From positions 19,399,582 through 19,463,581 of the forward strand of contig NC_091173.1 of NCBI RefSeq assembly GCF_040958095.1: a stretch of 64,000 nt of DNA. The letters run 5' to 3'. This DNA comes from Procambarus clarkii (Eukaryota > Arthropoda > Malacostraca > Decapoda > Cambaridae). Under the pieces are notes generated by a model. It made no database searches. It was not told the DNA's origin and saw only the letters and a program-made list of their open reading frames with translations. Positions 92 through 46,590 of the stretch are shown piece after piece (the stretch's first letter is position 1; every line of letters begins with the position of its first letter). Both the position numbers and the translations under genes were made by a program.

Positions 92-144
92 GTCTTTGAA
101 AATGTGAGGAGAGACCTTACGAAACGCATCACTAGGCGTCAGAC
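92..144 (+). ncRNA. Hammerhead-type ribozyme fold (degenerate core)
   Basis: Stem I is GTCT (92-95) with AGAC (141-144). The first core strand (96-102) reads TTGAAAA where the consensus is CTGATGA. Stem II is GTGAGG (104-109) with CCTTAC (115-120), including one G-T wobble. The second core strand is GAAA (121-124). Stem III is CGC (125-127) with GCG (136-138), followed by TC, giving a GTC cleavage triplet ending at 140. Hammerhead motifs are a known part of Penelope-like elements. The catalytic G8 position is A here, so activity is doubtful. The same fold with different stem sequence occurs at 46419-46474. Confidence 0.65.
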
Positions 145-286
145 CTAAATAAAAAGTAAAAATTAACTTTGGAGAGTTAATTTTTCAACTTCCTGTTTCA
201 GTGAAGAAAAAGATAAGGAATATCGAGAAGATTCGTGCCAGAATCATAAATCTAAAACTTTGTCGTTTTCAACAAAATATGTAATA

Positions 287-314
287 AATAATGGTCACTT
301 AAGTGACCATTATT
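287..314. repeat. Perfect 28-bp palindrome
   Basis: Two 14-base arms (287-300 and 301-314) are exact reverse complements with no spacer, centred on CACTT/AAGTG. It lies at the edge of the Penelope-like fragment. It is not a recognised regulatory site. Confidence 0.85.
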
Positions 315-557
315 AGGAAAACAAATATTTCAATGTGGATTTTTTTTCTAAAACCGTTCAATACAAAGTTATGTGAAGTGTCCAAAAGACACATCAGCAG
401 TAATATTTCTAAGAACGTTGAGTTAAATACTCCTTTGTCGGTGATGTATTTGTTGATAGTACAGATACTACCAGGAGGCCACTGAGGAGACCTGGTCAGA
501 GACCAGGCACCCTGACCCCCGGAATCGCCGCAAGGTAAGCACTGGTGAAGGAGGACC

Positions 558-1712
558 TCACTGTGCTGCGAGTCTGACGGTGAGCGCTAGTGCCTTCGTG
601 CCGAGGACGAAGGCCACCGCCACCCCAGCCAGCACTAGTACTACCCACACTCTGTTGAGCCTCAGAGTGGTACACGCCACCGAGGAGGGAGGCACCGTGG
701 TGCTGGACGGGGGTAGGTTCCTCGTGGACGGCGGTAACGGCTTCCCAGGGGAGGCCTCCATCACTCCTGGGGGAGGGTTGTGTGTGGGGGTGATGGCGCA
801 GCTCTCAGACTGCTTCCAAGTGTCATTCTTGAAGTATTCGTTTCTCCCACAGTTAAGGGACCCCATGGATACTTTCTTCGTTCTCAGCCGAAACCTGAGG
901 AATGAAACATTGCAGTTTTTGAAGACTTTTTTGCTGGTGAAGAAGCAGGAGTCTGGGCCTTCTCTCACGCGAATGCAACCCCCATGGAACTCTTTTTCTA
1001 TGTAATAAATGGACACCTCGTTCCACACTTCAGCCTTTAAGTTCAAATTTTCTTGGGTAACGACTTCCATATCTAAATTTTCCTCTTTGAAAACACAATT
1101 TTTAATCACTACGGAAAGGTTTAGCTGGAAATGGTCTTGGGGTAGCATGAAAAGCGTGTTGTTCTTGCCGTTTAAGTACACAATGGAATTATCTTGCATC
1201 ACTTGTTGACCAATGCAGCGTCGGGGACATTCCCAGACCAGCCGGGCCGTTGTGAGCTGGTACACGAGCACCTCGAACTGCCTACACCCCTCCCTCACGC
1301 CAGAGCTGATAGTGTAACTATGGTTCTGGTGACTGGTGGTAGCCTCCAGGACGCTCTCATTCGTCAACCTAAGGTCAATATCAGTCCAATTAGCAACAGA
1401 AAAAACTTCGGCGGGCCAAGAGTTCGATTTAATTAACTTTTCGCCTGTGTGCAGTGTGACCATTAGTTTGTTCTTGTTCTTGTAGTCAAGTCGAAGACCC
1501 AAACGCCATTCAGAGTTAGGACCTTTGATGATGAAATCAGCGGACCAGTCCTGACGTGTGATGCTGACGCCGAAGGTGGTAGGCAGCAGTGTCTTGAACA
1601 CATTGTTGACCTGGTGATGAGCGTAAGGCACACAAGGCTGCCAAGAACGCGAGGTCAACACCTCTGACAGCAGTGCTAGACTCAACATGAAGGTGGCAGC
1701 CAAGAGTGCCAT
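558..1712 (-). CDS. Orphan secreted/type I membrane protein, intronless
   Basis: I do not recognise this protein. The frame is open upstream, but the first ATG, at 1712, starts a good signal peptide (MALLAATFMLSLALL), which decides the start and gives 384 residues. The ectodomain of roughly 300 residues has about eleven cysteines and seven N-glycosylation sequons (NWT, NES, NHS, NNT, NLS, NVS, NDT), with a paired WECPRRC motif in the middle. Next comes a Pro/Ser/Thr-rich stalk (PPPG...PLPPSTRNLPPSS), then a hydrophobic segment (VWVVLVLAGVAVAFVLG) and a short tail. This is the layout of a type I surface protein with a mucin-like stem; a cleaved secreted form is possible. No splice sites interrupt it. 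I infer a lineage-restricted arthropod gene and cannot assign a ligand or function. Confidence 0.7.
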   Translation of the reverse strand: MALLAATFMLSLALLSEVLTSRSWQPCVPYAHHQVNNVFKTLLPTTFGVSITRQDWSADFIIKGPNSEWRLGLRLDYKNKNKLMVTLHTGEKLIKSNSWPAEVFSVANWTDIDLRLTNESVLEATTSHQNHSYTISSGVREGCRQFEVLVYQLTTARLVWECPRRCIGQQVMQDNSIVYLNGKNNTLFMLPQDHFQLNLSVVIKNCVFKEENLDMEVVTQENLNLKAEVWNEVSIYYIEKEFHGGCIRVREGPDSCFFTSKKVFKNCNVSFLRFRLRTKKVSMGSLNCGRNEYFKNDTWKQSESCAITPTHNPPPGVMEASPGKPLPPSTRNLPPSSTTVPPSSVACTTLRLNRVWVVLVLAGVAVAFVLGTKALALTVRLAAQ

Positions 1713-2290
1713 GTCGTTCAGGATGCGACAAAGGGAGCGTACTTCCACTCTCCGTCATGTCTCGTAGGCGACTGGTGATGCGTGCTTTGATTTGGTAAGT
1801 AAACTCGAGCGCATGCACACAGAGGGCACCTCTTGGTGCGTATATGACGACAGGTGCGAACATCATGACTTTTCTCTCTGATGTAACATCTCTCGAGAGT
1901 AAACTTCGTATTGCTTCATAGATTGCTTTTACGTGTAGTTACAAGTTTCATTTCCTGAACACAGACATGTTTAAGCGCTTGGTGTGGGGGAAAAAAAGCA
2001 CAATTTGGGTTTTCGTATTAGGCTCTTCTAAACACAAGGTCATACATGGCTCTGGTGGGTTCCCTTGGCTTCGCGGAGGTAGAGGGTGAGCCGACGACCA
2101 GAGGCGTCGACCAGAGCCGTCGACCAGAGGGTCGACGGCTCACAAAGTGGCCAGGATCTTCTGGCTGCACGCTGAAGTTGCCTGACCGCGGGGGGAGAAT
2201 CCATTCTCTCTGGAGTCAGAGGAAACCGATACGAGTCGTGTTGTATTTAATCAGGACTGTCCAACTTGGGCTTTTTTTTCATTCATTTTG

Positions 2291-2363
2291 ATCATCGGAG
2301 ATTCGAACTCGGACCTTAAAAGTACAAGATTTTTGTCCTACTGACTAGGCCATGGACGATCCA
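2291..2363 (-). mobile_element. tRNA-derived SINE head
   Basis: On the minus strand a box A-like TGGCCTAGTCAGTAGG and a box B-like GGTCCGAGTTCGAATC sit at tRNA spacing, and GGATCGT can pair with ATGATCA as an imperfect acceptor stem. The T-arm pairs well and the anticodon arm is poor. An A-rich run follows. This fits a SINE head better than a working tRNA gene. Confidence 0.55.
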
Positions 2364-3116
2364 AGTGAATGAAACATTATTACCCACGTAGGATGGGCAC
2401 AGGAATTTGCACACCAGTTGATAGACAGTTGAGAAGTGGAACCAGAGCTGAAGCTCGACCTCCGCAAGCAAAATTAGGCGAAATCAGAACTAACACCAGA
2501 CATGAAAAGCTGATTTCATCCTTAGTTTTAAAATACTGAACAAATTTAAAAATGTTATTCCAGATAATTTTAAAAGGTCAAATGCATACAAGCCCGGGTA
2601 ACAGCTCCAAGCTCGTAGATGAAATTGTTTATGTAATAATCCATTGAGGTCTGATAAAAACCTTTTTGTGCCGTCTGCAATGCTTCTTTGCGCTACCGCT
2701 CGCAGGACGAGTATGGGGTGCACAATAAACTAGCCGCCTCCAGCGGCAACAATCAAAAGCTCGACAAGCTTCCTTTTAGGACAGAATTTTTACTGGTACT
2801 GCGGGACCCTTTTGACATCACTCGTCTTGTCAACATATCGAATGATATAAAAGACTTAACCGTTCTGCGCCAGAGACGGGGTTAAATATTATTGCAGGCT
2901 AAGTGCCTTCTTTTGATAACTGTTTACTTAGGCAAAGGTAAGGCAGGGTTCGAATTCATCTTGGCGCTTGGATTATTTGCTTGCTTCTGGATAAGTGATT
3001 TTGGAGAGAAGAGCTGAAGAAGGTTCTCAGGTTGTGGAGTGTATTGGTTCTGGACAACGGGGATCTAAAACGTGTGATTGTACCAAAATAAAAACGATAG
3101 GTATGAATGCTAAAAT

Positions 3117-3122
3117 TTTATT
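3117..3122 (-). promoter_or_regulatory. Poly(A) signal of the DM4/DM12 gene
   Basis: AATAAA on the minus strand about 245 bases past the stop at 3365. It is the nearest canonical hexamer downstream. Confidence 0.5.
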
Positions 3123-3195
3123 CAAAATATTTACACAGGTAAAGTTGCCGCTTGTTCAGTGTACCTCATCTATCCCGTCCTCAATGGACGGGGAG

Positions 3196-3197
<2 letters not shown>

Positions 3198-3232
<35 letters not shown>

Positions 3233-3250
3233 AGGGAGAGGGGGGGGGAG
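3198..3250. repeat. (GA)n microsatellite grading into G-rich tract
   Basis: About nine AG units pass into GGGAGA units and a G run. It lies close to the DM4/DM12 stop, probably in its 3' UTR. Confidence 0.9.
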
Positions 3251-3364
3251 GCGAGGTAAGGGAAGAGGGAGGGTGTGCACTCACTGGAATACTATGAGCA
3301 GAAGTGACCAACCAGGCCGCCATTAGACCAGGGGACCGCCCTGAAGGAAGGTTGTGGCCTTACT

Positions 3365-6300
3365 CTAGTAGACCGGAGTAATCGTGGTAAAAAAGTCGGC
3401 GAAGGAGACGGGACACTGGGAGTAGATGGAGTGACAGGACCCGTGGTGGCGACCATAATGCTCAGCCGCAGCGTACTCGTTGTCTAGGTCGCTCTCCACC
3501 TCGTTGAGCGCTGCGGCGCTTATCCTGGAAAACGAAATCACAATCAAAACATAAGCCTTAGTTCCCGCACTTTAAAAGGAGCAAGATGTGGCGGCCTTGC
3601 TTGAAACGGAACAAAACTAAAGTAAAATTTCCTCCGTAGACTTTCCTCTGGAGAGCTCGTCATTACTTTCTAGAATTCTCAGTGTGCAAAGAAAATTAAA
3701 CATGATGTAATTGATTTTTAAACTATACAAGGACACTGAACCAGCGAGCATGGGACTTGCAACACCGGACACCACATGCAGGTACACGAGCCGGCCGTGT
3801 TCGGGACACCCTTCAGGCACACTGCAGGTACCGTAGGACCAGGCTCACACGGGGAGCTCCGGGACCTTCCACTGGTCGCTGATTCACATCCCCGAAATGT
3901 TCCTTACTCTCACAGTGTTACATTCAATCTTAAGCCAATTTAAACGGTAATATAATTAATTTTCAGCTTAAGAATTCTATAAATAAGCAGAGAATAAGCT
4001 ATGGAATATTCTAAGAGTTCTTAAGCAAATTTTTCATAATGGAAAGTACAATCAGAATAGAAGCACCAAGTAAAAATCCACATTTATCTTTAAGAACACA
4101 GAGCTGAAAGAGACACCAAAAGTGGCAGGTCGTAGAGAGGCAAGAGAGAGAGGCCAAAGTACCTCACTGACGGTCGAAGTGACGACTAAGTTACACGTAA
4201 ACGTTGCATTGGTACTCACGATAAAATTAAGTTGGCGACCTCCCCGAGGAGCCCGTGCTGGAAGGGCAGGTCAGCGACCTCGCAGATGGTCCTGAGCGTG
4301 CATTCGTGACCGTTGTAGCCCAGGCTGGTCAGGTCAACGCGGAGGAGAGGTTACATGTGGGTACAACTACCGTCTCAGGGTAATCAAGTATAGTATATGA
4401 GAGTATACCTGACAGTTAATATTGTGGTAACAAATGAAAGCACCAAGCCGAAACAAAAATAATCTAACAGTTCGGATTTATTATCAGTAATAGTAATGAT
4501 TATAATAATAATAATTCCAGGGAACATAGGATTAAGGATTTGCCCGAAACGCTACGCGTACTAGTGCTTGTACAAGAATGTAACCACTCTTGTATATATA
4601 AAAAAAAATTATTTATAATAAAATTTTAAAGATACGCATGCTCGCACCCCCTCCCCCCCCCCCCCTTCCCCTACCTGTCAAGAAGCATTTCAATTTCACG
4701 GTAGAAGTCAAAGCGCTGCTCCAAAGCCTGCAACGATCGTCCAAAACTGATGGTGGTGGAGTTGTTGAGGTTAAAGAGCATTGAGCTCTGGAGTGCCAGG
4801 TTGCTGAGGTACCCGACTCCGGGCAGAGGCAGTCGGAGATTAGTTTGTACCTGTGGAGGAAGTAGTGATCAAGAGAAGACACCAAGCCCGGGGGGACTAG
4901 GTAACACCAGTGAAGGATGATACGCTACACAGTCTAAGAGGAACTCGCTGAGAAATTACTACAAGCTCTTCCCGCCGGACGTCTTTTGACGTCTCGCCGA
5001 GAAGGAAATTTTAAGACCGAACTCGCGTCACTAGACTTCCCAGACACGTGCACCACCGAATGGACCATGAGAAGGTGCGTGTGCCTTGGGGGAGTCCAGG
5101 AAGGAGGGTTCGATCCCATTGAATGACCTCATTATTGTGAATAAATCCACAAGAGCCGTGAAGAAGGTTCGAGTTTGTGTCTCGGAGAGACTGCGGGATC
5201 CGTGTGAGAGCAGTAGCAATCCCGGTTGCAATTCTTTTGACCATGTCGTGACTCAGTCGATTAAGACACGTCCGGGATCATCCTGGACGTAAGTTCGAAC
5301 TCTCATCACGGCTCTTGTGAATTTATTCATTTGATATATCACGCTATTGTAATTTCTGCGTGGACTTCAATACTGTATCACTGGTTCACTACGTTCTCGC
5401 GATGTCACTGCACGGGGGCACATTGATTGGTTTAGGCCATTATCGGTAACTAGGAGTATTGTCACTATAATTCTATATTACTTTGAAGGGAGACGAAGAC
5501 AGTAAGAGCTGGGATACGAGGATGAAAGGGAACTATCAGGAGAAAGCGCCAAGCCATTACGACTATATAGCGCTGGGAAGGGGTCAGGATAAGGATTCGG
5601 GGGGGGGGGGGAAGGAATGGTGCCCAACCACTTGTGGCGACCTCCCCGAGGAGACCGTGCTGGAAGGGCAGGTCAGCGACCTCGCAGATGGTCGCTGACC
5701 ATCTCGGGGTCAGGGGATTGAACACGATGGACAGTCGGGGATTGAACGCCAACCTGCATGGCGCGAGACCGTCGCTCTACCGCCCAGCCCAAGTTGTTGG
5801 GATGGAGTGAAGGAATGCTGCTCAACCACTTGGGCAATCGGGAATCGAATGCCGACCTTACACACGAAGCAGTGCAGTCACTGTACCCACCAGCAGCGGG
5901 TACAGTGTACCCTCTGTGGGCGCCTCACAGCTGAGTAGACAGCGCTTCGGATTCGTATTCCAGAGGTTCCGGGTTCGATCCCCGGTGGAGACGGAGACAA
6001 ATGGGCAAAAATGTTTCTTTCACCCTGATGTCCCTGTTACCTAGCAGTAAATAGGTACCCGGGAGTTAGACAGCTGCTACGGGCTGCTTCCTGGGAGGTA
6101 ACAAAAAGGACCGAGGACCGGGCCGCAGGGACGCTATGCCCCGAAATCATCTCAAGGTAAGCTCAACATAACCAATCGAAGTGGACGGGGCTTGATATAA
6201 AGAATATGTTGTTTTCCTATCCAAATTTACAAATACTTTAAATTTAATCCTTTTAATTTGTAAAGTTGTTTTTCTCTCATGGTTATTATAGTTGTACTTA

Positions 6301-6559
6301 GTAGTAAACGAGAATGGCAATCATTTCTTCGGTGTAAATAATGGACAAGATGGTGGCGACAACGGCTTACCCCGAGTAAACTTCCCAATGGGAAGATAAG
6401 GAAGCGTCTCTTGCGATATTTAGCGACCTTACTTCCCTCGGGGACATTCTGCAGCCACTCTGGCGTATCCAACTGGTCGCCCTCGGGCAACGCGGCCAGC
6501 GCCGCCATCACCACGCTCATACTCGACGTCACCAGCACAGCCTGCAGAAGCTTGACCAT
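3365..6559 (-). CDS. DM4/DM12-family secreted protein, 4 exons
   Basis: Exons (minus strand) are 6371-6559, 4675-4850, 4220-4324 and 3365-3524. All have GT-AG borders and join in phase to 630 nt, or 209 residues. The ATG at 6559 begins a signal peptide (MVKLLQAVLVTSSMSVVMAA). Residues 51-63 carry the family's RRFLIFPLGS-type basic/hydrophobic motif and exon 2 opens VQTNLRLPLPG. The family core follows: C130 and C136 in CTLRTICE, then C187 and C194 in the GSCHSIYSQC end. One NST sequon lies in exon 2. These features match the arthropod DM4/DM12 family (Pfam DM4_12), small secreted proteins of unknown biochemical role. Intron 1 holds SINEs and a stray copy of part of exon 3. The gene appears intact. 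Confidence 0.85.
4540..4615 (+). mobile_element. LINE/SINE 3'-tail fragment in intron 1 flank
   Basis: The stretch has CCCGAAACGCTACGCGTACT, then TACAAGAATGTAA, CTTGTATATATA and an A run. The same tail recurs at 31510-31660, 32779-32890, 49025-49160, 55497-55625 and 56432-56602. It lies in intron 2 of the DM4/DM12 gene. Confidence 0.7.
5040..5335 (+). mobile_element. Two tRNA-derived SINE pieces in tandem
   Basis: The first part has a box B-like GGTTCGATCCCA at about 5107. The second (about 5240-5330) has a box A-like GTGACTCAGTCGATTAAG and box B-like AGTTCGAACTC. Both are followed by the CACGGCTCTTGTG-type string that also occurs at 56930, in one case as its complement. They lie in intron 1 of the DM4/DM12 gene. 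Confidence 0.6.
5635..5693 (-). repeat. Near-identical partial copy of DM4/DM12 exon 3
   Basis: These 59 bases match exon 3 bases 4233-4291 with one visible difference. The copy lies in intron 1 of the same gene, in the same orientation as the gene. It starts and stops inside the exon with no splice sites, and SINE-like sequence flanks it on both sides. It is a fragment, not a usable exon. Confidence 0.9.
5700..5900. repeat. SINE-like sequence around the exon copy
   Basis: Two related GGAATG.TG(C)CCAACCACTTG strings (5614-5634 and 5813-5833) flank the exon copy and tRNA-arm-like pieces with GATTGAAC and GAATCGAATGCC. It is probably one or two degraded tRNA-headed SINEs. Confidence 0.45.
5920..6172 (+). 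mobile_element. tRNA-headed SINE, tail type 2
   Basis: A tRNA-like head with box B GGTTCGATCCCCGG leads into the body ATGGGCAAA...TTTCACCCTGATG...CTAGCAGTAAATAGGTACC. It ends in GACCGGGCCGCAGGGACGC...CCCCGAAATCATCTCAAG. The same order occurs at 8948-9187, 47421-47632, 24733-24985 and 51081-51328. It lies in intron 1 of the DM4/DM12 gene. Confidence 0.85.
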
Positions 6560-7321: not shown

Positions 7322-7411
7322 ATCCCGTGGGCGGTAGTAGGCCCCACACCCATCCCGTGGGCGGTAGTGGGCCCCACACCCATCCCGTGGGCGGTAGTGG
7401 CCCCCGCAAGG
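7322..7411 (+). repeat. Three copies of a 30-bp unit
   Basis: Three head-to-tail units read CCATCCCGTGGGCGGTAGT followed by GGCCCC and ACACC, with one base difference. The CCCATCC.GTGGG core is also part of a dispersed decapod-type repeat seen at 33070 and 55855. Confidence 0.8.
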
Positions 7412-11405: not shown

Positions 11406-30345
<18,940 letters not shown>

Positions 30346-31772: not shown

Positions 31773-31775
<3 letters not shown>

Positions 31776-33045: not shown

Positions 33046-33049
33046 GCTT

Positions 33050-33689: not shown

Positions 33690-34310
33690 AGATCAGGTCC
33701 CCCATTTGTTCTGATTTTTTTTCAAATTGGATTTTACAATTCGTGTTATGTTATTTACTGCTTTAGCAGATAGGCGGTTCCATGGGTTTATAACCCTGTG
33801 GGTGAAAATATAGCTTATGTTTTCAGTCCTACACTGCGGCTTGTTGGACTTGAAACCGTTGTTCCTTGTTTGTGTTCCATCTGACCTTTTGAAGTTGTTC
33901 TCTGGATCCATATCTTCGAAACTGTTCAATATTTTAATAGGCAGGCGATGAGTCACAATAACGTGGCTGAAGTATGTTGACCAGACCACACACTAGAAGT
34001 TGAAGGGACGACGAATTTCGGTCCGTCCTGGACCATTCTCAAGTCGATTCAAGTCGATATTTTAATAGTTTCGGTGAGATCCATCCTGGCATGCCTAGTT
34101 TGCAGTGTTTACTAGTAGTGTTTTTGCGGGGGTTGAGCTTTGCTCTTTCGGCCCGCCTCTCAACTGTCAATCAACTGTTTACTAACTACTTTTTTTTTCC
34201 CCCACACCACACACAGTGCAGTGTTGTTAGCCCGCTGACCCTCAACCATTCATGGTATGAAACTAGACTTCATTCTGCAATTATTTTTGTCGCCTGGTGT
34301 TCAATTTTCT
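33690..34310 (-). mobile_element. LINE fragment, interrupted, abutting the minisatellite
   Basis: Minus-strand pieces MEKIEHQATKIIAE (about 34270-34310) and FTHRVINPWNRLSAKAVNN (about 33735-33790) are typical of non-LTR retrotransposon RT C-termini. The stretch resembles 48595-48905. Other repeat sequence is inserted near 33955-34050 and 34150-34200. The left edge of the 11-kb array begins just beyond it. Confidence 0.65.
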
Positions 34311-34332
34311 CCATGAAAGGTTGGCGCGGGGT

Positions 34333-34575
34333 GGGTTCTCTGTCGGGCTCCAAGTGGGTTCTCTGTCGGGCTCCAAGTGGGTTCTCTGTCGGGCCCCAAG
34401 TGGGTTCTCTGTCGGGCCCCAAGTGGGTTCTCTGTCGGGCCCCAAGTGGGTTCTCTGTCGGGCCCCAAGTGGGTTCTCTGTCGGGCCCCAAGTGGGTTCT
34501 CTGTCGGGCCCCAAGTGGGTTCTCTGTCGGGCCCCAAGTGGGTTCTCTGTCGGGCCCCAAGTGGGTTCTCTGTCG
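34333..34575. repeat. Zone A: 23-bp unit, about 11 copies
   Basis: The unit is GGGTTCTCTGTCGGG plus CCCCAAGT. The first two copies have CTCCAAGT; the remainder are identical by eye. Confidence 0.93.
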
Positions 34576-35059
34576 GGGCTCCGGGGTGGGTTGTCGGTCG
34601 GGGCTCCGGGGTGGGTTGTCGGTCGGGGCTCCGGGGTGGGTTGTCGGTCGGGGCTCCGGGGTGGGTTGTCGGTCGGGGCTCCGGGGTGGGTTGTCGGTCG
34701 GGGCTCCGGGGTGGGTTGTCGGTCGGGGCTCCGGGGTGGGTTGTCGGTCGGGGCTCCGGGGTGGGTTGTCGGTCGGGGCTCCGGGGTGGGTTGTCGGTCG
34801 GGGCTCCGGGGTGGGTTGTCGGTCGGGGCTCCGGGGTGGGTTGTCGGTCGGGGCTCCGGGGTGGGTTGTCGGTCGGGGCTCCGGGGTGGGTTGTCGGTCG
34901 GGGCTCCGGGGTGGGTTGTCGGTCGGGGCTCCGGGGTGGGTTGTCGGTCGGGGCTCCGGGGTGGGTTGTCGGTCGGGGCTCCGGGGTGGGTTGTCGGTCG
35001 GGGCTCCGGGGTGGGTTGTCGGTCGGGGCTCCGGGGTGGGTTGTCGGTCGGGGCTCCGG
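34576..35059. repeat. Zone B: 25-bp unit, about 19 identical copies
   Basis: The unit is GGGGCTCCGGGGTGGG plus TTGTCGGTC. I saw no base difference among copies until the last, which runs into CGGACAGGC. Such uniformity points to very recent expansion or assembly-supported homogenisation. Confidence 0.93.
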
Positions 35060-35955
35060 ACAGGCTTTAGGTACTCAACTGGCGGGCTCTGGGTGGGTGA
35101 CTGTTCGGGCTCCAGGTGGGTGTCTGTCCGGCTTCGGGTGGGTTCTTGGTAGGGCTTGGGGGGTGTGGGTTCTTGGTAGGGCTTGGGGGGTGTGGGTTCT
35201 TGGTAGGGCTTGGGGGGGTGTGGGTACTTGGTAGGGCTTGGGGGGGTGTGGGTTCTTGGTAGGGCTTGGGGGGGTGTGGGTTCTTGGTAGGGCTTGGGGG
35301 GTGTGGGTTCTTGGTAGGACTTGGGGGGGGGGGGTGTGGGTTCTTGGTAGGACTTGGGGGGGGGGGGGGTGTGGGTTCTTGGTAGGGCTTGGGGGGGGGT
35401 GTGGGTTCTTGGTAGGGCTTGGGGGGGGGTGTGGGTTCTTGGTAGGGCTTGGGGGGGTGTGGGTTCTTGGTAGGGCTTGGGGGGGTGTGGGTATTTGGTA
35501 GGGCTTGGGGGGGGGGTGTGGGTATTTGGTAGGGCTTGGGGGGGTGTGGGTTCTTGGTAGGGCTCGGGGGGTGTGGGTTCTTGGTAGGGCTCGGGGGGGT
35601 GTGGGTTCTTGGTAGGGCTCGGGGGGGTGTGGGTTCTTGGTAGGGCTCGGGGGGGTGTGGGTTCTTGGTAGGGCTCGGGGGGGTGTGGGTTCTTGGTAGG
35701 GCTCGGGGAGGTGTGGGTTCTTGGTAGGGCTCGGGGGGGGGGGGGGGGTGTGGGTTCTTGGTAGGGCTCGGGGGGTGTGGGTTCTTGGTAGGGCTCGGGG
35801 GGTGTGTGGGTTCTTGGTAGGGCTCGGGGGGGGGGGGGGTGTGGGTTCTTGGTAGGGCTCGGGGGGGTGTGGGTTCTTGGTAGGGCTCGGGGGGGGGGGG
35901 GTTGGGTTCTCTGTAGGGCTCGGGGTGGGTTCTCGGTAGGGCTCGGGGCGGGCTC
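35060..35955. repeat. Zone C: TGTGGGTTCTTGGTAGGGCT units with variable G runs
   Basis: About 30 units differ mainly in the length of the terminal G run (5 to 13) and in CTTG versus CTCG. The switch from CTTG to CTCG units occurs once, near 35560. Confidence 0.9.
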
Positions 35956-38900
35956 CAGGTACTCAACTGACGGGTTCCAGTTCACTCAACTGGCGGGCTC
36001 CGGTTCACTCAACTGGCGGGCTCCGGTTTATTAAACTGGCGGGCTCCGGGTGTTTGACTGGTCGGGCTCCGGGTGGGTGACTGTTCGGGCTCCAGGTGGG
36101 TGTCTGTCCGGCTTCGGGTATGTTCTTGGTAGGGCTTCGGGGTTGGTTCTTGGTAGGGCTTAGGGTTGGCTCCCGGTCAGGCTCAGGGTGGGCTCTTTCG
36201 GGTTCGGGATGGGCTCTCGGGCTTGGGGTACCTCTGTAGGGCTCGGGGTAGGTTCTTGGTCGGGCCCAGGGTGGGTTCTCTGTAGGGCTCAGGGTGTTTT
36301 CATGGTAGGACTAGGGGTGGGTTCTCTGTAGGGATCAGGGTGGGTTCTCGGTAGGGCTCTGGGTGGGTTCTCGGTAGGGCTCGGGGCGGGCTCCAGGTAC
36401 TCAACTGACGGGTTCCAGTTCACTCAACTGGCGGGCTCCGGTTCACTCAACTGGCGGGCTCCGGTTTACTAAACTGGCGGGCTCCGGGTGTTTGACTGGT
36501 CGGGCTCCGGGTGGGTGACTGTTCGGGCTCCAGGTGGGTGTCTGTCCAGCTTCGGGTGGGTTCTTGGTAGGGCTTGGGGTGGGTTCTTGGTAGGGCTTGG
36601 GGGGTGGGTTCTCGGTAGGGCTTGGGGGGTGGGTTCTCGGTAGGGCTTGGGGGTGGGTTCTCGGTAGGGCTCGGGGTGGGCTCTTTCGGGATCGGGATAG
36701 GCTCTCAGGCTTGGGGAACCTCTGTAGGGCTCGGGGTAGGTTCTTGGTCGGGCTCAGGGTGGGTTCTCGGTAGGGCTCGGGGCGGGCTCCAGGTACTCAA
36801 CTGACGGGTTCCAGTTCACTCAACTGGCGGGCTCCGGTTCACTCAACTGGCGGGCTCCGGTTTACTAAACTGGCGGGCTCCGGGTGTTTGACTGGTCGGG
36901 CTCCGGGTGGGTGACTGTTCGGGCTCCAGGTGGGTGTCTGTCCAGCTTCGGGTGGGTTCTTGGTAGGGCTTTGGGTGGGTTCTCGGTAGGTATTAGGGCT
37001 GGGTTCTTGGTAGGGCTTGGGGGTGGGTTCTTGATAGAGCTTGGGGGTGGGTTCTTGGTAGGGTTTGGGGTTGGCTCCCGGTCAGGCTCGGGGTGGGCTC
37101 TTTCGGGATCGGGATAGGCTCTCGGGCTTGGGGAACTTCTGTAGGGCTCGGGGTAGGTTCTTGGTCGGGCTCAGGGTGGGTTCTCGGTAGGGCTCGGGGC
37201 GGGCTCCAGGTACTCAACTGACGGGTTCCAGTTCACTCAACTGGCGGGCTCCGGTTCACTCAACTGGCGGGCTCCGGTTTACTAAACTGGCGGGCTCCGG
37301 GTGTTTGACTGGTCGGGCTCCGGGTGGGTGACTGTTCGGGCTCCAGGTGGGTGTCTGTCCAGCTTCGGGTGGGTTCTTGGTAGCGCTTGGGGTGGGTTCT
37401 TGGTAGGTATTAGGGCTGGGTTCTCGGTAGGGCTTGGGGGGTGGGTTCTCGGTAGGGCTTGGGGGGTGGGTTCTCGGTAGGGCTTGGGGGGTGGGTTCTC
37501 GGTAGGGCTCGAGGTGGGCTCTTTCGGGATCGGGATAGGCTCTCGGGCTTGGGGAACCTCTGTAGGGCTCGGGGTAGGTTCTTGGTCGGGCTCAGGGTGG
37601 GTTCTCGGTAGGGCTCGGGGCGGGCTCCAGGTACTCAACTGACGGGTTCCAGTTCACTCAACTGGCGGGCTCCGGTTCACTCAACTGGCGGGCTCCGGTT
37701 TACTAAACTGGCGGGCTCCGGGTGTTTGACTGGTCGGGCTCCGGGTGGGTGACTGTTCGGGCTCCAGGTGGGTGTCTGTCCAGCTTCGGGTGGGTTCTTG
37801 GTAGGGCTTGGGGTGGGTTCTTGGTAGGTATTAGGGCTGGGTTCTTGGTAGGGCTTGGGGGTGGGTTCTTGGTAGGGCTTGGGGGTGGGTTCTTGGTAGG
37901 GCTTGGGGGTGGGTTCTTGGTAGGGCTTGGGGGTGGGTTCTTGGTAGGGCTTGGGGGTGGGTTCTCGGTAGGGCTTGGGAAGGTGGGTTCTCGGTAGGGC
38001 TTGGGGGGGGTGGGTTCTCGGTAGGGCTTGGGGGGGTGGGTTCTCGGTAGGGCTTGGGGGGGGTTCTCGGTAGGGCTTGGGAAGGTGGGTTCTCGGTAGG
38101 GCTTGGGGGGGTGGGGGGTTCTCGGTAGGGCTTGGGGGGGTGGGTTCTTGGTAGGGCTTGGGGGGGTGGGTTCTCGGTAGGGCTTGGGGGGGGTGGGTTC
38201 TCGGTAGGGCTTGGGGGGGTTGGGTTCTCGGTAGGGCTTGGGGGGGTGGGTTCTCGGTAGGGCTTGGGGGTGTGGGTTCTCGGTAGGGCTTGGGGGTGTG
38301 GGTTCTCGGTAGGGCTTGGGGGGGGGGTTCTCGGTAGGGCTTGGGGGGGTGGGTTCTCGGTAGGGCTTGGGGGGTGGGTTCTCGGTAGGGCTTGGGGGGT
38401 GGGTTCTCGGTAGGGGTCGGGGTGGGCTCTTTCGGGATTGGGATAGGCTCTCGGGCTTGGGGAACCTCTGTAGGGCTCGGGGTAGGTTCTTGGTCGGGCT
38501 CAGGGTGGGTTCTCTATAGGGCTCGGGGCGGGTTCTCTGTAGGGATCGGGGTGGGTACTCGGTAGGGCTCGGGGCGGGCTCCAGGTACTCAACTGACGGG
38601 TTCCAGTTCACTCAACTGGCGGGCTCCGGTTCACTCAACTGGCGGGCTCCGGTTTACTAAACTGGCGGGCTCCGGGTGTTTGACTGGTCGGGCTCCGGGT
38701 GGGTGACTGTTCGGGCTCCAGGTGGGTGTCTGTCCGGCTTCGGGTGGGTTCTTGGGGTGGGTTCTTGGTAGGTATTAGGGCTGGGTTCTTGGTAGGGCTT
38801 GGGGGGTGGGTTCTCGGTAGGGCTTGGGGGGTGGGTTCTCGGTAGGGCTTGGGGGGTGGGTTCTCGGTAGGGCTTGGGGGGTGGGTTCTCGGTAGGGCTT

Positions 38901-41900
38901 GGGGGGTGGGTTCTCGGTAGGGCTTGGGTGGTGGGTTCTCGGTAGGGCTTGGGGGGTGGGTTCTCGGTGGGGCTTGGGGGGTGGGTTCTCGGTGGGGCTT
39001 GGGGGGTGGGTTCTCGGTGGGGCTTGGGGGGTGGGTTCTCAGTAGGGCTTCGGGGGGTGGGTTCTCGGTAGGGCTCGGCGTGGGCTCTTTCGGGATCGGG
39101 ATAGGCTCTCGGGCTTGGGGAACCTCTGTAGGGCTCGGGGTAGGTTCTTGGTCGGGCTCAGGGTGGGTTCTCGGTAGGGCTCGGGGCAGGCTCCAGGTAC
39201 TCAACTGACGGGTTCCAGTTCACTCAACTGGCGGGCTCCGGTTCACTCAACTGGCGGGCTCCGGTTTACTAAACTGGCGGGCTCCGGGTGTTTGACTGGT
39301 CGGGCTCCGGGTGGGTGACTGTTCGGGCTCCAGGTGGGTGTCTGTCCAGCTTCGGGTGGGTTCTTGGTAGGGCTTGGGGTGGGTTCTTGGTAGGTATTAG
39401 GGCTGGGTTCTTGGTAGGGCTTGGGGGTAGGTTCTTGGTAGGGCTTGGGGGTGGGTTCTTGGTAGGGTTTGGGGTTGGCTCCCGGTCAGGCTCGGGGTGG
39501 GCTCTTTCGGGATCGGGATAGGCTCTCGGGCTTGGGGAACTTCTGTAGGGCTCGGGGTAGGTTCTTGGTCGGGCTCAGGGTGGGTTCTCGGTAGGGCTCG
39601 GGGCGGGCTCCAGGTACTCAACTGACGGGTTCCAGTTCACTCAACTGGCGGGCTCCGGTTCACTCAACTGGCGGGCTCCGGTTTACTAAACTGGCGGGCT
39701 CCGGGTGTTTGACTGGTCGGGCTCCGGGTGGGTGACTGTTCGGGCTCCAGGTGGGTGTCTGTCCAGCTTCGGGTGGGTTCTTGGTAGGGCTTGGGGTGGG
39801 TTCTTGGTAGGTATTAGGGCTGGGTTCTCGGTAGGGCTTGGGGGGTGGGTTCTCGGTAGGGCTTGGGGGGTGGGTTCTCGGTAGGGCTTGGGGGGTGGGT
39901 TCTCGGTAGGACTTGGGGGTGGGTTCTCGGTAGGGCTCGGGGTGGGCTCTTTCGGGATCGGGATAGGCTCTCGGGCTTGGGGAACCTCTGAAGGGCTCGG
40001 GGTAGGTTCTTGGTTGGGCTCAGGGTGGGTTCTCGGTAGGGCTCGGGGCGGGCTCCAGGTACTCAACTGACGGGTTCCAGTTCACTCAACTGGCGGGCTC
40101 CGGTTCATTCAACTGGCGGGCTCCGGTTTACTAAACTGGCGGGCTCCGGGTGTTTGACTGGTCGGGCTCCGGGTGGGTGACTGTTCGGGCTCCAGGTGGG
40201 TGTCTGTCCAGCTTCGGGTGGGTTCTTGGTAGGGCTTGGGGTGGGTTCTCGGTAGGGCTTGGGGGTGGGTTCTCAGTAGGGCTTGGGGGGTGGGTTCTCG
40301 GTAGGGCGGGTTCTCGGTAGGGCTTGGGGGGTGGGTTCTCGGTAGGGCTTGGGGGTGGGTTCTCGGTAGGGCTCGGGGTGGGCTCTTTCGGGATCGGGAT
40401 AGGCTCTCGGGCTTGGGGAACCTCTGTAGGGCTCGGGGTAGGTTCTTGGTCGGGCTCAGGGTGGGTTCTCGGTAGGGCTCGGGGCGGGCTCCAGGTACTC
40501 AACTGACGGGTTCCAGTTCACTCAACTGGCGGGCTCCGGTTCATTCAACTGGCGGGCTCCGGTTTACTAAACTGGCGGGCTCCGGGTGTTTGACTGGTCG
40601 GGCTCCGGGTGGGTGACTGTTCGGGCTCCAGGTGGGTGTCTGTCCAGCTTCGGGTGGGTTCTTGGTAGGGCTTGGGGTGGGTACTTGGTAGGGCTTGGGG
40701 GGTGGGTTCTCGGTAGGGCTTGGGGGGTGGGTTCTCGGTAGGGCTTGGGGGGTGGGTTCTCGGTAGGGCTTGGGGGGTGGGTTCTCGGTAGGGCTTGGGG
40801 GGTGGGTTCTCGGTAGGGCTCGGGGTGGGCTCTTTCGGGATCGGGATAGGCTCTAGGGCTTGGGGAATCTCTGTAGGGCTCGGGGTAGGTTCTTGGTCGG
40901 GCTCAGGGTGGGTTCTCGGTAGGGCTCGGGGCGGGCTCCAGGTACTCAACTGACGGGTTCCAGTTCACTCAACTGGAGGGCTCCGGTTCACTCAACTGGC
41001 GGGCTCCGGTTTACTAAACTGGCGGGCTCCGGGTGTTTGACTGGTCGGGCTCCGGGTGGGTGACTGTTCGGGCTCCAGGTGGGTGTCTGTCCAGCTTCGG
41101 GTGGGTTCTTGGTAGGGCTTGGGGTGGGTTCTTGGTAGGTATTAGGGCTGGTTCTTGGTAGGGCTTGGGGGTGGGATCTTGGTAGGGCTTGGGGGTGGGT
41201 TCTTGGTAGGGCTTGGGGGTGGGTTCTTGGTAGGGCTTGGGAAGGTGGGTTCTCGGTAGGGCTTGGGGGGGGGGTTCTCGGTAGGGCTTGGGGGGGTGGG
41301 TTCTCGGTAGGGCTTGGGGGGGTGGGTTCTCGGTAGGGCTTGGGAAGGTGGGTTCTCGGTAGGGCTTGGGGGGGTGGGGGGTTCTCGGTAGGGCTTGGGG
41401 GGGTGGGGGGTTCTCGGTAGGGCTTGGGGGGGTGGGGGGTTCTCGGTAGGGCTTGGGGGGGTGGGGGGTTCTCGGTAGGGCTTGGGGGGGTGGGTTCTCG
41501 GTAGGGCTTGGGGGGTGGGTTCTCGGTAGGGCTTGGGGGGGTGGGTTCTCGGTAGGGGTCGGGGTGGGCTCTTTCGGGATTGGGATAGGCTCTCGGGCTT
41601 GGGGAACCTCTGTAGGTCTCGGGGTAGGTTCTTGGTCGGGCTCAGGGTGGGTTCTCTATAGGGCTCGGGGCGGGTTCTCTGTAGGGATCGGGGTGGGTAC
41701 TCGGTAGGGCTCGGGGCGGGCTCCAGGTACTCAACTGACGGGTTCCAGTTCACTCAACTGGCGGGCTCCGGTTCACTCAACTGGCGGGCTCCGGTTTACT
41801 AAACTGGCGGGCTCCGGGTGTTTGACTGGTCGGGCTCCGGGTGGGTGACTGTTCGGGCTCCAGGTGGGTGTCTGTCCGGCTTCGGGTGGGTTCTTGGGGT

Positions 41901-44900
41901 GGGTTCTTGGTAGGTATTAGGGCTGGGTTCTTGGTAGGGCTTGGGGGGTGGGTTCTCGGTAGGGCTTGGGGGGTGGGTTCTTGGTAGGTATTAGGGCTGG
42001 GTTCTTGGTAGGGCTTGGGGGGTGGGTTCTCGGTAGGGCTTGGGGGGTGGGTTCTTGGTAGGGCTTGGGGGGTGGGTTCTCGGTAGGGCTTGGGGGGTGG
42101 GTTCTCGGTAGGGCTTGGGGGGTGGGTTCTCGGTAGGGCTTGGGGGGTGGGTTCTCGGTAGGGCTTGGGTGGTGGGTTCTCGGTAGGGCTTGGGGGGTGG
42201 GTTCTCGGTAGGGCTTGGGGGGTGGGTTCTCGGTAGGGCTTGGGGAGTGGGTTCTCGGTAGGGCTTCGGGGGGTGGGTTCTCGGTAGGGCTCGGGGTGGG
42301 ATCTTTCGGGATCGGGATAGGCTCTCGGGCTTGGGGAACCTCTGTAGGGCTCGGGGTAGGTTCTTGGTTGGGCTCAGGGTGGGTTCTCGGTAGGGCTCGG
42401 GGCGGGCTCCAGGTACTCAACTGACGGGTTCCAGTTCACTCAACTGGCGGGCTCCGGTTCATTCAACTGGCGGGCTCCGGTTTACTAAACTGGCGGGCTC
42501 CGGGTGTTTGACTGGTCGGGCTCCGGGTGGGTGACTGTTCGGGCTCCAGGTGGGTGTCTGTCCAGCTTCGGGTGGGTTCTTGGTAGGGCTTGGGGTGGGT
42601 TCTTGGTAGGTATTAGGGCTGGGTTCTTGGTAGGGCTTGGGGGTAGGTTCTTGGTAGGGCTTGGGGGTGGGTTCTTGGTAGGGTTTGGGGTTGGCTCCCG
42701 GTCAGGCTCGTGGTGGGCTCTTTCGGGATCGGGATAGGCTCTCAGGCTTGGGGAACTTCTGTAGGGCTCGGGGTAGGTTCTTGGTCGGGCTCAGGGTGGG
42801 TTCTCGGTAGGGCTCGGGGCGGGCTCCAGGTACTCAACTGACGGGTTCCAGTTCACTCAACTGGCGGGCTCCGGTTCACTCAACTGGCGGGCTCCGGTTT
42901 ACTAAACTGGCGGGCTCCGGGTGTTTGACTGGTCGGGCTCCGGGTGGGTGACTGTTCGGGCTCCAGGTGGGTGTCTGTCCAGCTTCGGGTGGGTTCTTGG
43001 TAGGGCTTGGGGTGGGTTCTTGGTAGGTATTAGGGCTGGGTTCTCGGTAGGGCTTGGGGGGTGGGTTCTCGGTAGGGCTTGGGGGGTGGGTTCTCGGTAG
43101 GGCTTGGGGGGTGGGTTCTCGGTAGGGCTTGGGGGTGGGTTCTCGGTAGGGCTCGGGGTGGGCTCTTTCGGGATCGGGATAGGCTCTCGGGCTTGGGGAA
43201 CCTCTGTAGGGCTCGGGGTAGGTTCTTGGTCGGGCTCAGGGTGGGTTCTCGGTAGGGCTCGGGGCGGGCTCCAGGTACTCAACTGACGGGTTCCAGTTCA
43301 CTCAACTGGCGGGCTCCGGTTCATTCAACTGGCGGGCTCCGGTTTACTAAACTGGCGGGCTCCGGGTGTTTGACTGGTCGGGCTCCGGGTGGGTGACTGT
43401 TCGGGCTCCAGGTGGGTGTCTGTCCAGCTTCGGGTGGGTTCTTGGTAGGGCTTGGGGTGGGTTCTTGGTAGGGCTTGGGGGTGGGTTCTTGGTAGGGCTT
43501 GGGGGTGGGTTCTTGGTAGGGCTTGGGGGTGGGTTCTTGGTAGGGCTTGGGGGTGGGTTCTTGGTAGGGTTTGGGGTTGGCTCCCGGTCAGGCTCGGGGT
43601 GGGCTCTTTCGGGATCGGGATAGGCTCTCGGGCTTGGGGAACTTCTGTAGGGCTCGGGGTAGGTTCTTGGTCGGGCTCAGGGTGGGTTCTCGGTAGGGCT
43701 CGGGGCGGGCTCCAGGTACTCAACTGACGGGTTCCAGTTCACTCAACTGGCGGGCTCCGGTTCACTCAACTGGCGGGCTCCGGTTTACTAAACTGGCGGG
43801 CTCCGGGTGTTTGACTGGTCGGGCTCCGGGTGGGTGACTGTAAGGGCTCCAGGTGGGTGTCTGTCCGGCTTCGGGTGGGTTCTTGGTAGGGCTTGGGGTG
43901 GGTTCTTGGTAGGTATTGGGGCTGGGTTCTCGGTAGGGCTTTGGGCTGGGTTCTCGGTAGGGCTTTGGGCTGGGTTCTCGGTAGGGCTTGGGGCTGGGTT
44001 CTCGGTAGGGCTTGGGGCTGGGTTCTCGGTAGGGCTTGGGGGGTGGGTTCTCGGTAGGGCTTGGGGGGTGGGTTCTCGGTAGGGCTTGGGGGGGTGGGTT
44101 CTCGGTAGGGCTTGGAGGGGGTGGGTTCTCGGTAGGGCTTGGGGGGGGGTTCTCGGTAGGGCTTGGGGGGGGGTTCTCGGTAGGGCTTGGGGGGGGGGGG
44201 TTCTCGGTAGGGCTTGGGGGTGTGGGTTCTCGGTAGGGCTTGGGGGGGGGTGGGTTCTCGGTAGAGCTTGGGGGGTGGGTTCTCGGTAGGGCTTGGGGGG
44301 GTGGGTTCTCGGTAGGGCTTGGGGGTGGGTTCTCGGTAGGGCTCGGGGTGGGCTCTTTCGGGATCGGGATAGGCTCTCGGGCTTGGGGAACCTCTGTAGG
44401 GCTCGGGGTAGGTTCTTGGTCGGGCTCAGGGTGGGTTCTCTGTAGGGCTCGGGGTGGGTTCTTGGTAGGGCTCGGGGCGGGTTCTCTGTAGGGCTCTGGG
44501 TGGGTTCTCGGTCGGGCTCGGGGCAGGCTCCAGGTACTCAACTGACGGGTTCCAGTTCACACAACTGGCGGGCTCCGGTTCACTCAACTGGCGGGCTCCG
44601 GTTTACTAAACTGGCGGGCTCCGGGTGTTTGACTGGTCGGGCTCCGGGTGGGTGACTGTTCGGGCTCCAGGAGGGTGTCTGTCCGGCTTCGGGTGGGTTC
44701 TTGGTAGGGCTTGGGGGTGGGTTCTTGGTAGGGCTTGGGGGTGGATTCTTGGTAGGGCTTGGGGGTGGGTTCTTGGTAGGGCTTGGGGGTGGGTTCTTGG
44801 TAGGGCTTGGGGGTGGGTTCTTGTTAGGGCTTGGGGGTGGGTTCTTGTTAGGGCTTGGGGGTGGGTTCTTGGTAGGGCTTGGGGGTGGGGTCTTGGTAGG

Positions 44901-45420
44901 GCTTGGGGGTGGGGTCTTGGTAGGGCTTGGGGGTGGGGTCTTGGTAGAACTTGGGGGTGGGGTCTTGGTAGGGCTTGGGGGTGGGGTCTTGGTATGGCTT
45001 GGGGGTGGGGTCTTGGTAGGGCTTGGGGGTGGGGTCTTGGTATGGCTTGGGGGTGGGGTCTTGGTAGGGCTTGGGGGTGGGGTCTTGGTAGGGCTTGGGG
45101 GTGGGTTCTTGGTAGGGCTTGGGGTTGGCTCTCGGTTGTCAAGCTCGGGGTGGGCTCTCGGGCTTGGGGTACCTCTGTAGGGCTCGGGGTAGGTTCTTGG
45201 TCGGGCTCAGGGTGGGTTCTCTGTAGGGCTTGGGGTGGGTTCTCTGTAGGGATCGGGGTGGGTTCTCGGTAGGGCTCTGGGTGGGTTCTTGGTTGGGCTC
45301 GGGGCAGGCTCCAGGTACTCAACTGATGGGTTCCAGTTCATTCAACTGGCGGGCCCCGGTTCACTCAGCTGGCGGGCTCCAGGTGGGTGTCTGTCCGGCT
45401 TCGGGTGGGTTCTTGATAGG
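35956..45420. repeat. Zone D: higher-order repeats, 18 anchors
   Basis: An anchor containing ACTCAACTGACGGGTTCCAG, then repeated CACTCAACTGGCGGGCTCCG and a GTTTGACTGGTCGGGCTCC string, starts near 35961, 36399, 36796, 37212, 37633, 38587, 39200, 39615, 40061, 40497, 40943, 41730, 42416, 42832, 43277, 43720, 44535 and 45317. Between anchors lie variable numbers of 24- or 25-bp units and a second fixed cassette with GGGCTCTTTCGGGATCGGG. Most spacings are 397-446; others run from 613 to 954, mostly through extra small units. Confidence 0.93.
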
Positions 45421-45432
45421 GCATAGGGTTGG

Positions 45433-46590
45433 CTGCCCAGACAAGTACAAGGGGAATGTTGTCTACGCTTATGTCGACCGTGCTCTAAGCCACAGCTCAG
45501 GATGGAAGCAAGTCGATGAAGAACTCTGTAGGGTAAGGCAGGTCCTAGTCAACAATGGCTTCTCCAATGGTTTCGTTGAAGACATCATAAAAAGGAAAGT
45601 GAAACACCATTCAACCTCTGAAGAGTCAACTAACACAACACCTGTACCCCCTATTAGACTATTTTACAGGAACTTCTTTTCCACAGCTCATAAAACGGAG
45701 GAAAGGGTCCTGAAAGATATTGTTAATAGGAACGTTATCCCTACAGACAAAAATCAGAAGATACAATTGACAATTTACTATAAAACCAAAAAAACAGCCA
45801 ACCTACTCATGAAAAACTCTCCTGACACAAAGCAGAACGCCTTAAAGGAGACTAACGTCGTCTATGCCTTCGAATGCCCACTTGGGGACTGTAAGCCTCA
45901 AAGAACTCAGTATATAGGCAAGACAACAACATCTCTTTCCAGGTGATTAACAATGCATAAGCAACAGGGCTCCATTAAGAAACATCTCTTCCCACAATCA
46001 GGCCATCACCAGAGAAGTCTTAACAAACAGCACAGAAATCATCGATAGATACAGCGATAGCAGGCAGCTTGACATCTGTGAGGCACTACACATCAAGAAG
46101 TCAACACCAGCAATCAACAGCCAATTGATGCACAACTATATTCTACCCACTTCAAGACTCCGTACCAATATAGAAGCATCAAGAGGAAGTATGGGTCAAT
46201 AGGCCCTTTGCAGTTACTTCCATTCTTCCCTCTCATTTATCCAATTTATACCCATTGTTCCGTGTTCTGTGTTGGTCAAAAGTTTGTTCACCTCATCCAA
46301 AACTGTTGCAACACATCACCTCACCCAAATGCGAGTATATAAGACAATCTGTTTAATGTTAGCATAAGTAAAACTCTGTTTAGTGTTCTCAGGTTACAGT
46401 TGTGTGTGTATAAACTAAAGTCTCTGAAAATGTAACAAGTTATTACGAAACGCGTTCAAGCCTCGCGTCAGACTAGAAATAAAAAAGAATTTTGGAGAAT
46501 TGATTTTTCAATTACCATCCACAGTAAAAATAAACATAAATATTGAGAAAATTCGTTGTAGAATTATTAATCTTACTTTTTCGGTCATAT
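45433..46590 (+). mobile_element. Penelope-like element fragment: endonuclease end plus pseudo-LTR
   Basis: The frame from 45433 reads the C-terminal part of a Penelope-like protein, with GNVVYAYVDRAL, PPIRLFYRNFF, VVYAFECPLGDCKPQ and QYIGKTTTSLSR. The last two match the cysteine motif and GIY-YIG endonuclease start of the family. Related coding sequence continues to about 46195 (HIKKSTPAINSQLMHNYIL) after at least one break. A non-coding part with a hammerhead fold follows, then a stretch resembling the start of the element. It is 5'-truncated exactly at the minisatellite edge. These elements have no capsid and move by reverse transcription. Confidence 0.85.
46419..46474 (+). ncRNA. Hammerhead-type ribozyme fold in the Penelope-like element
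   Basis: Stem I is AGTCT (419-423 of this kb) with AGACT (470-474). The core strand CTGAAAA differs from CTGATGA at positions 7 and 8. Stem II is GTAA (432-435) with TTAC (443-446). GAAA lies at 447-450. Stem III is CGCG (451-454) with CGCG (464-467), then TC, so cleavage would follow C46469. Stem lengths and sequences differ from the 92-144 copy while pairing is kept. The G8 to A change in the core is shared by both copies. Confidence 0.7.

What the first reader, a model, noticed from the sequence alone, without database searches (positions are those of the whole stretch)
92..46474. Two Penelope-linked hammerhead folds with co-varying stems and the same non-consensus core base
Copies at 92-144 and 46419-46474 both fold into three stems around GAAA and a GTC cleavage triplet. 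Stem II changes from GTGAGG/CCTTAC to GTAA/TTAC and stem III from CGC/GCG to CGCG/CGCG with pairing kept. Both have AAA where the consensus core has TGA, so G8, a catalytic base, is A in both. Hammerheads in Penelope-like elements are known. A shared G8 change could mark an active subfamily with a variant core, or one that spread after losing cleavage.
Basis: partly seen in the sequence, partly recalled or inferred. Interest (0 to 1): 0.75.

Follow-up and report, generated by a model that had tools for sequence, protein, structure and literature searches.

The report
Penelope hammerhead with swapped core pair
Two copies of a self-cutting-RNA motif carried by a jumping gene belong to a huge family in which one internal base pair of the ribozyme has been swapped for an equivalent pair, a change already known to be tolerated, so the family looks like a working variant although these two copies are themselves old fragments.

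Summary
Both folds are real: hammerhead motifs at 92-144 and 46420-46473, each followed by the start of the next Penelope-like element (PLE) unit. The shared A8 is the family's own letter, not decay. Of 40,953 genome matches to a pattern free at positions 3, 7 and 8, 40,685 have U3 and A8, 123 have C3, 22 have G8. In the same genome another PLE family (13,078 matches) shows C3-G8 in every row listed; a third motif family (30,612) shows U3-A8 in all listed rows but one. Natural, active U3-A8 hammerheads are in print (PMC3088659 section 8). Most likely this is a working variant core in a PLE lineage, with a short stem III, 15 nt before the ORF start of a tandem unit. Copy 1 is a solo 3' fragment. 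Copy 2 is a passenger in a larger duplicated block and its C3.A8 mismatch is decay. Rfam finds neither site, but misses a canonical-core copy too. Activity was not tested.

The parts
92..144 (+). copy 1 hammerhead motif: U3 at 96, A8 at 101, extra U at 103, GAAA 121-124, A15.1-U16.1 = 124/139, predicted cleavage after C140
   Evidence: sequence, regex, fold; 20 fetched relatives: U3 in 19, A8 in 19, both in 18
145..282 (+). copy 1 'tail': start of the next PLE unit (frame NFGELIFQLPVSVKKKIRNIEKIRARIINL); the in-frame ATG present in 13 of 20 relatives reads ATT here, as in 6 of the 20; match to the unit ends at 282
   Evidence: match to tandem unit L062 ends at unit position 357
45433..46225 (+). 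5'-truncated PLE body of copy 2: end of RT, GIY-YIG-like region and start of the 3' UTR, 90% identical to tandem unit L062
   Evidence: domain calls on L062
46420..46473 (+). copy 2 hammerhead motif: C3 at 46424, A8 at 46429 (mismatch), GAAA 46447-46450, predicted cleavage after C46469
   Evidence: the identical motif stands in 22 of the rows listed, this one included; flanks
46474..46602 (+). copy 2 'tail'; the ATG of L062, L015 (two copies) and L018 reads AAG here; match to the unit ends at 46602, TA repeat follows
   Evidence: unit position 355
45373..47500 (.). duplicated block that carries copy 2 as passenger. Non-PLE sequence downstream of 46602 is shared by 5 of 5 fetched relatives (95-97%); the PLE truncation point is shared by the 3 that cover it in matching sequence (L065, L066, L067), L063 starts inside and L064 diverges before 45632. 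45373 rests on L065 alone; 47500 is the end of the stretch compared
   Evidence: L063-L067

Best explanation
The two sites are remnants of a Penelope-like retroelement whose pseudo-LTR ends in a type I hammerhead with the core pair U3-A8 instead of C3-G8. Shown: a tandem array with units of 2,765 bp and this motif at each unit start, an RT/GIY-YIG reading frame (broken by one stop in the copy read) between them, the predicted cut 15 nt before the first in-frame ATG, inserts that end about 183 or 220 nt after the motif's start, and near-fixation of U3 and A8. Inferred: RNA of tandem copies folds at each junction and the ribozyme cuts after GUC with U3-A8 doing the job of C3-G8 (the ribose of residue 8 is held to supply the acid, so the base change is tolerable while the pair is kept), giving unit-length RNA that starts just ahead of the ORF; the element then inserts cut or uncut RNA by internal initiation at the tail site, so every insert ends in a hammerhead plus tail. 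Copies 1 and 2 are such 3' ends. Copy 1 keeps U3-A8, with A instead of the usual G at the free N7. Copy 2 lost U3 and was multiplied as a passenger.
For: Core letters: 40,953 matches free at 3, 7, 8, reversed-pattern control 0; U3+A8 40,685; C3 123; G8 22, of which 1 also C3. C3-G8 PLE family: 13,078 matches, every listed row C3-G8; two of its head-to-head copies, L068 and L070, hold YVDD-type RT and GIY-YIG-like frames by tblastn and by eye, 25-28% identical to the U3-A8 PLE. Other U3-A8 motifs: 30,612 matches, all listed rows U3, one with U at 8; L005:4570-4606, stem I of only 3 bp, ahead of a PLE-like frame. Stem II: 89.0% of cells paired, 5 of 6 pairs with two-sided changes; with the 3-8 pair 84.6% against 69.4 +/- 2.4 shuffled, slid controls 31-58%. 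Unit 2,765 bp, cut to ATG 15 nt. Weak Pfam matches RVT_1 E 0.0016 and GIY-YIG E 0.00076, both under Pfam's cut-off, in the second frame piece. Insert ends at unit positions 355-357 or 392, as the PLE 'tail' of PMC11167929. U3-A8 natural and active elsewhere (PMC3088659 section 8).
Against: No cleavage was tested. Rfam recognises neither site, nor the tandem-unit copy. Copies inherit the master's letters, so 40,685 is one or few evolutionary events, and the other U3-A8 motifs may share that event. The pattern fixes the rest of the core and stems I and III, so their conservation is not tested by it. The covariation set was picked by eye from listed rows and is rich in C3 rows; the 3-8 pair alone is 58.8% standard there. 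One of 10 shuffled descriptor hits outscored every real one. Copy 2's bare 54 nt prefer another fold. The strand between stems I and II is one base long, and another register (N7 missing, G8 kept) is possible for TTGAGAAT, though not for TTGAAAAT. The first frame piece of L062 had no Pfam match. In the PAc element hammerhead mutants still inserted in vitro and cleavage needed protein.
Confidence: 0.78

Rival explanations
1. The family lost cleavage and spread without it; A8 (and U3) hitch-hiked in a successful master copy, and the fold persists because it overlaps a signal used by the PLE protein.
For: PAc hammerhead mutants did not affect insertion in vitro (PMC11167929). Rfam gives no match. 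Copy number alone cannot show activity.
Against: A neutral loss would not be expected to change both partners of the one core pair; in the two-subfamily alignment the rest of the core is kept in most rows while N7 varies (exceptions such as L023, L029, L033, L037, L039); U3-A8 is also found with different stems in other motif families, though shared descent is possible.
Confidence: 0.15
2. The two window copies are independently decayed copies of a C3-G8 hammerhead that happen to share A8.
For: Both are dead fragments.
Against: A8 is in 19 of 20 relatives of copy 1 and in all 19 of 20 relatives of copy 2 that parsed, and G8 is in only 22 of 40,953 pattern matches.
Confidence: 0.02
3. Chance fold or a different three-way junction (protein-binding structure of the PLE 5' end) that only resembles a hammerhead.
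For: No Rfam support; one shuffled descriptor hit scored above all real ones; copy 2's bare sequence prefers another fold.
Against: Descriptor hits exceed shuffles in number, 12 places against 0.33 per set; the core letters other than 3 and 8 are present in both copies; same place in the element as the PAc hammerhead; stem II covaries.
Confidence: 0.05

Closest known systems
Hammerhead of PAc, a Poseidon-type PLE of Anolis carolinensis (PMC11167929; parts 1 and 2 of 4 of the text read)
   Same: Hammerhead at the pLTR/ORF junction of tandem PLE units, an AUG at the start of stem II, inserts ending in a short tail from two initiation sites
   Different: There C3-G8 and the cut is 26 bp after the start codon, with stems I and II and loop II named but no stem III; here U3-A8, stem III of 3-4 bp plus A-U, and the cut 15 nt before the first in-frame ATG
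Natural U3-A8 hammerhead core variants (Perreault et al. 2011, PMC3088659; section 8 and passages read)
   Same: C3-G8 replaced by U3-A8, reported in several natural examples and earlier shown active in vitro
   Different: The text read does not say in which elements; here it is near-fixed in a very large PLE family
Minimal PLE/Terminon hammerheads (Cervera and de la Pena 2014; Lunse et al. 2017; both not held, known here through passages of PMC6155905, PMC7229834, PMC7761336)
   Same: Type I hammerhead in PLE pseudo-LTRs
   Different: Those are described as usually lacking helix III and possibly cleaving as dimers; the window's family has a short helix III, while the L005, L008 and L012 motif types have only the A-U pair there (by sequence)

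Membership tests
Hammerhead ribozyme, type I | Three stems around U4-G5-A6, A9, G12-A13-A14, A15.1-U16.1 and H17 | tested here: met
   Both copies by sequence; fold of copy 1 as such, of copy 2 only with flanks; one extra U before stem II
Hammerhead ribozyme, type I | C3-G8 Watson-Crick pair of the core | tested here: not met
   U3-A8 in 40,685 of 40,953 pattern matches: pairing kept, identity changed, a variant in print. Copy 2 has C3.A8, no pair
Hammerhead ribozyme, type I | Match to an Rfam hammerhead model | tested here: inconclusive
   No match at gathering or at E up to 10; the one C3-G8 PLE copy tried is missed too
Hammerhead ribozyme, type I | Self-cleavage after H17 | not testable with these tools
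   needs RNA
Penelope-like element (canonical, EN+) | RT with GIY-YIG endonuclease in one element | tested here: met
   L062: RVT_1 E 0.0016 and GIY-YIG E 0.00076, both under Pfam's cut-offs, in the second of two frame pieces; none in the first. YVDD motif by eye. A stop separates the pieces. Window 45433-46225 is 90% identical to L062
Penelope-like element (canonical, EN+) | Tandem or head-to-head units with pseudo-LTRs | tested here: met
   Four motifs 2,761-2,765 bp apart on C1 near 11.00 Mb and head-to-head pairs; unit 2,765 bp; L015 inverted arrangement
Penelope-like element (canonical, EN+) | 30-40 bp optional tail at the 3' end | tested here: met
   Matches end at unit positions 355-357 (both window copies) or 392 (L015 twice, L018), about 36 nt apart
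Retrozyme (non-autonomous, circRNA) | Short tandem repeats (about 170-400 nt) without coding sequence | tested here: not met
   Unit is 2,765 bp and coding

The most novel reading that the evidence does not exclude
PLE lineages of one animal genome use two interchangeable hammerhead cores, C3-G8 and U3-A8, each near-fixed in more than ten thousand copies, and in the U3-A8 lineage of this window the ribozyme is also a translational switch: the AUG built into its core is followed at once by a stop (AUG-UAA or AUG-UGA), and cutting removes that decoy start 15 nt ahead of the true ORF start.
Probability: 0.12. Interest if true: 0.65.

Novelty: new member of a known kind. Interest (0 to 1): 0.38.

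Why it matters
The C3-G8 pair is a contact of the hammerhead core whose exchange has been argued largely from mutants. Here one genome offers PLE families with C3-G8 and with U3-A8 at master level, each with more than ten thousand copies: a natural double-mutant test of that pair and a ready set of RNAs for asking whether PLE hammerheads are used in the life cycle. It also warns that searches which demand the consensus core or a longer stem III, Rfam included, overlook very large PLE families.

Tried and rejected
Rfam RF00163 in the whole genome gave nothing, nor did 14 control genomes, so that search is uninformative. A PDB sequence search and a Pfam scan of the short window fragment 45404-45943 gave nothing useful; the domain evidence had to come from L062. 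I considered that the extra U is an alignment error: the C3-G8 family has the same length and the same ATG, so it is a family feature. I considered that copy 2's C3 marks an active sublineage: the flanks show a duplicated block instead. A link of the 30,612-match motif (L008 type) to a PLE protein was looked for in L008 and L069 and not found; only the similar L005 motif has a PLE-like frame. Papers: none of the titles listed, nor the passages opened in seven papers (PMC11167929, PMC6155905, PMC7229834, PMC3088659, PMC10085705, PMC2837043, PMC7761336), reports U3-A8 in PLE hammerheads; the most relevant papers (PMC4209133, PMC5785218, also PMC5850863 and PMC1986816) are not held, so I cannot say that it is unpublished. 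A broad all-family pattern and an exact C3-G8 count did not complete.

Full report
What is there. Copy 1 (92-144) and copy 2 (46420-46473) each show stem I GTCT/AGAC, an eight-base strand, stem II, GAAA, stem III and TC before AGAC. Lowest-energy folding gives these stems for copy 1; for copy 2 it gives them when four flanking bases are kept on each side, while the bare 54 nt prefer a fold with stem I slid into the core. A scan of 22 stretches (271,201 bases, 12,103 of them N, both strands; sizes) with a hammerhead descriptor that leaves positions 3, 7 and 8 free gave 12 places, scores 9 to 13 (copy 1 appears twice because L001 overlaps the window). Thirty first-order Markov versions gave 10 places in all, one of which scored 18, above every real one. 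Two of the 12 (window 60095, L019 5787) look like chance to me. So the motifs are more frequent than chance, though a single hit would prove little.

The core. Relative to the consensus C3-U4-G5-A6-N7-G8-A9 (numbering recalled), copy 1 reads U-U-G-A-A-A-A and copy 2 C-U-G-A-A-A-A, both followed by an extra U and the G of stem II. A pattern free at 3, 7 and 8, but fixed in stem I, U4-G5-A6, A9 and the extra U, part of stem II, GAAA, stem III and TC, has 40,953 matches and none for the reversed pattern. Of these, 40,685 have U3 and A8, 123 have C3, 22 have G8 and 1 of them also C3. Copies that decayed elsewhere in the motif are left out by this pattern. Copies taken by similarity alone agree: of 20 fetched relatives of copy 1 (out of 40 scored matches), U3 is in 19, A8 in 19, both in 18. 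N7 is G in 18 of the 20, C in one, A in one; copy 1 has A. Copy 2 and the L015 and L018 copies have A7.

Other families of the same genome. A motif with stem I CCTT/AAGG and the core CTGANGATG has 13,078 matches with 3, 7 and 8 left free, and every row listed (the tool lists only the first places) is C3-G8. Two head-to-head copies, L068 and L070, hold frames with YVDD-type RT and a GIY-YIG-like end, seen by tblastn and by eye, that align with the L062 frame at 25-28% identity; no Pfam scan was made of them. A motif with stem I CGAC/GTCG and the core TTGAGAATG has 30,612 matches; all listed rows have U3 and all but one A8. No PLE frame was found beside it. A similar motif in L005 (4570-4606, stem I of 3 bp) stands ahead of a frame starting ATGAGTTTTGGAGAA that is 55% identical to the start of the L062 frame over 53 residues. 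In the 22 stretches L001 also holds a decayed CCTT-type motif with U3 and G8. So at master level the two core letters are found together as C3-G8 or as U3-A8. PMC3088659 (section 8 read) states that C3 and G8 pair, that they covary to U3 and A8 in several natural hammerheads and that such ribozymes had been shown active in vitro. The variant is therefore known; its host family here is what is added.

Anatomy of the element. Four motifs on C1 near 11.00 Mb lie 2,761, 2,765 and 2,765 bp apart on one strand. The unit between two of them (L062) carries two long frame pieces separated by a stop; the first has no Pfam match, the second matches RVT_1 (E 0.0016) and GIY-YIG (E 0.00076), both below Pfam's cut-offs. 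The predicted cut lies 15 nt before the first in-frame ATG. Window 45433-46225 is 90% identical to unit positions 1929-2723, and motif and tail follow up to unit position 355; copy 1 (70% identical) ends at 357; the L015 and L018 copies end at 392. Two ends about 36 nt apart fit the optional 30-40 bp tail that PMC11167929 links to two internal starts of reverse transcription (parts 1 and 2 of 4 read). Inserts thus end in pseudo-LTR, hammerhead and tail, which explains solo motifs such as copy 1: the 6.6 kb upstream of the window hold no match to the L062 unit.

Copy 2 as passenger. A search with the copy 2 region returned 40 scored matches, 11 of them with the same score of 329 bits. Five taken with flanks (L063-L067) match the window at 95-97%. 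All five share non-PLE sequence downstream of the insert. The PLE truncation point and 7 to 60 bases before it are shared by L065, L066 and L067; L063 begins inside the PLE, and L064 diverges before 45632 and has a further break downstream. Of the 20 short copies fetched, 19 parsed: 17 have C3, 2 have U3, all 19 have A8. The simplest reading is that C3.A8 arose in one dead insert that was later multiplied with its surroundings; the carrier was not identified and the other 15 copies were not checked for flanks. It does not argue for a working C3-A8 core.

Stem evidence. Between the two window copies stem II differs by G.U to A-U and by length, which is weak. On 17 chosen rows from four motif types, stem II has 5 of 6 pairs with changes on both sides and 89.0% of cells paired; the whole structure with the 3-8 pair is 84.6% against 69.4 +/- 2.4 in shuffles (0 of 500 as high) and 31-58% in slid controls. 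I chose the rows from listings, C3 rows are over-represented, and the 3-8 pair alone is 58.8% paired in that set. Stems I and III were fixed in the patterns and are not tested by them.

Model searches. Rfam gave no hammerhead match at either site, in the tandem unit, in one CGAC-type copy or in one C3-G8 copy, at E up to 10. Since it misses a canonical core with a one-pair stem III too, the absence is no evidence against.

How it most likely works. Inferred: tandem transcripts fold at each unit junction; U3-A8 holds residue 8 as C3-G8 does; cleavage after GUC gives a unit RNA that begins 15 nt before the ORF. The short stem III could let single motifs act, whereas PLE hammerheads are described as usually lacking helix III and perhaps needing dimers (PMC6155905, PMC7761336, passages). 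Whether cleavage is used is open: in PAc, cleavage needed protein and mutants still inserted. A role of the AUG-UAA/AUG-UGA inside the core is a speculation from the letters only.

Verdict. Observation sound; interpretation half right. It is a member of the PLE hammerheads with the known U3-A8 core exchange, notable for copy number and for the clean contrast with a C3-G8 family in the same genome.

Noticed in passing
window 102-107 and 46430-46435: The AUG formed by A9, the extra U and G10.1 is followed at once by a stop codon in both subfamilies (AUG-UGA, AUG-UAA), ahead of the ORF's own ATG.
   Followed up: partly
window about 45373-47500: Copy 2 sits in a duplicated block with non-PLE flanks, 95-97% identical in five fetched places; the carrier was not identified.
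   Followed up: partly
window about 34000-45300: Long tandem repeat arrays with overlapping open frames on both strands.
   Followed up: no
G000:C1 rows: Many hammerhead pairs stand head-to-head with only a few to some tens of bases between them, forming inverted repeats.
   Followed up: no
L008 97-135 and 4009-4050: A 30,612-match motif family with U3-A8 and no stem III, for which no PLE frame was found in the stretches held.
   Followed up: partly
window 558-1754 (-), 58637-60157 (+), 62442-62954 (-): Open frames that look like a membrane or secreted protein, a JmjC-type protein and a transposase end (by eye).
   Followed up: no
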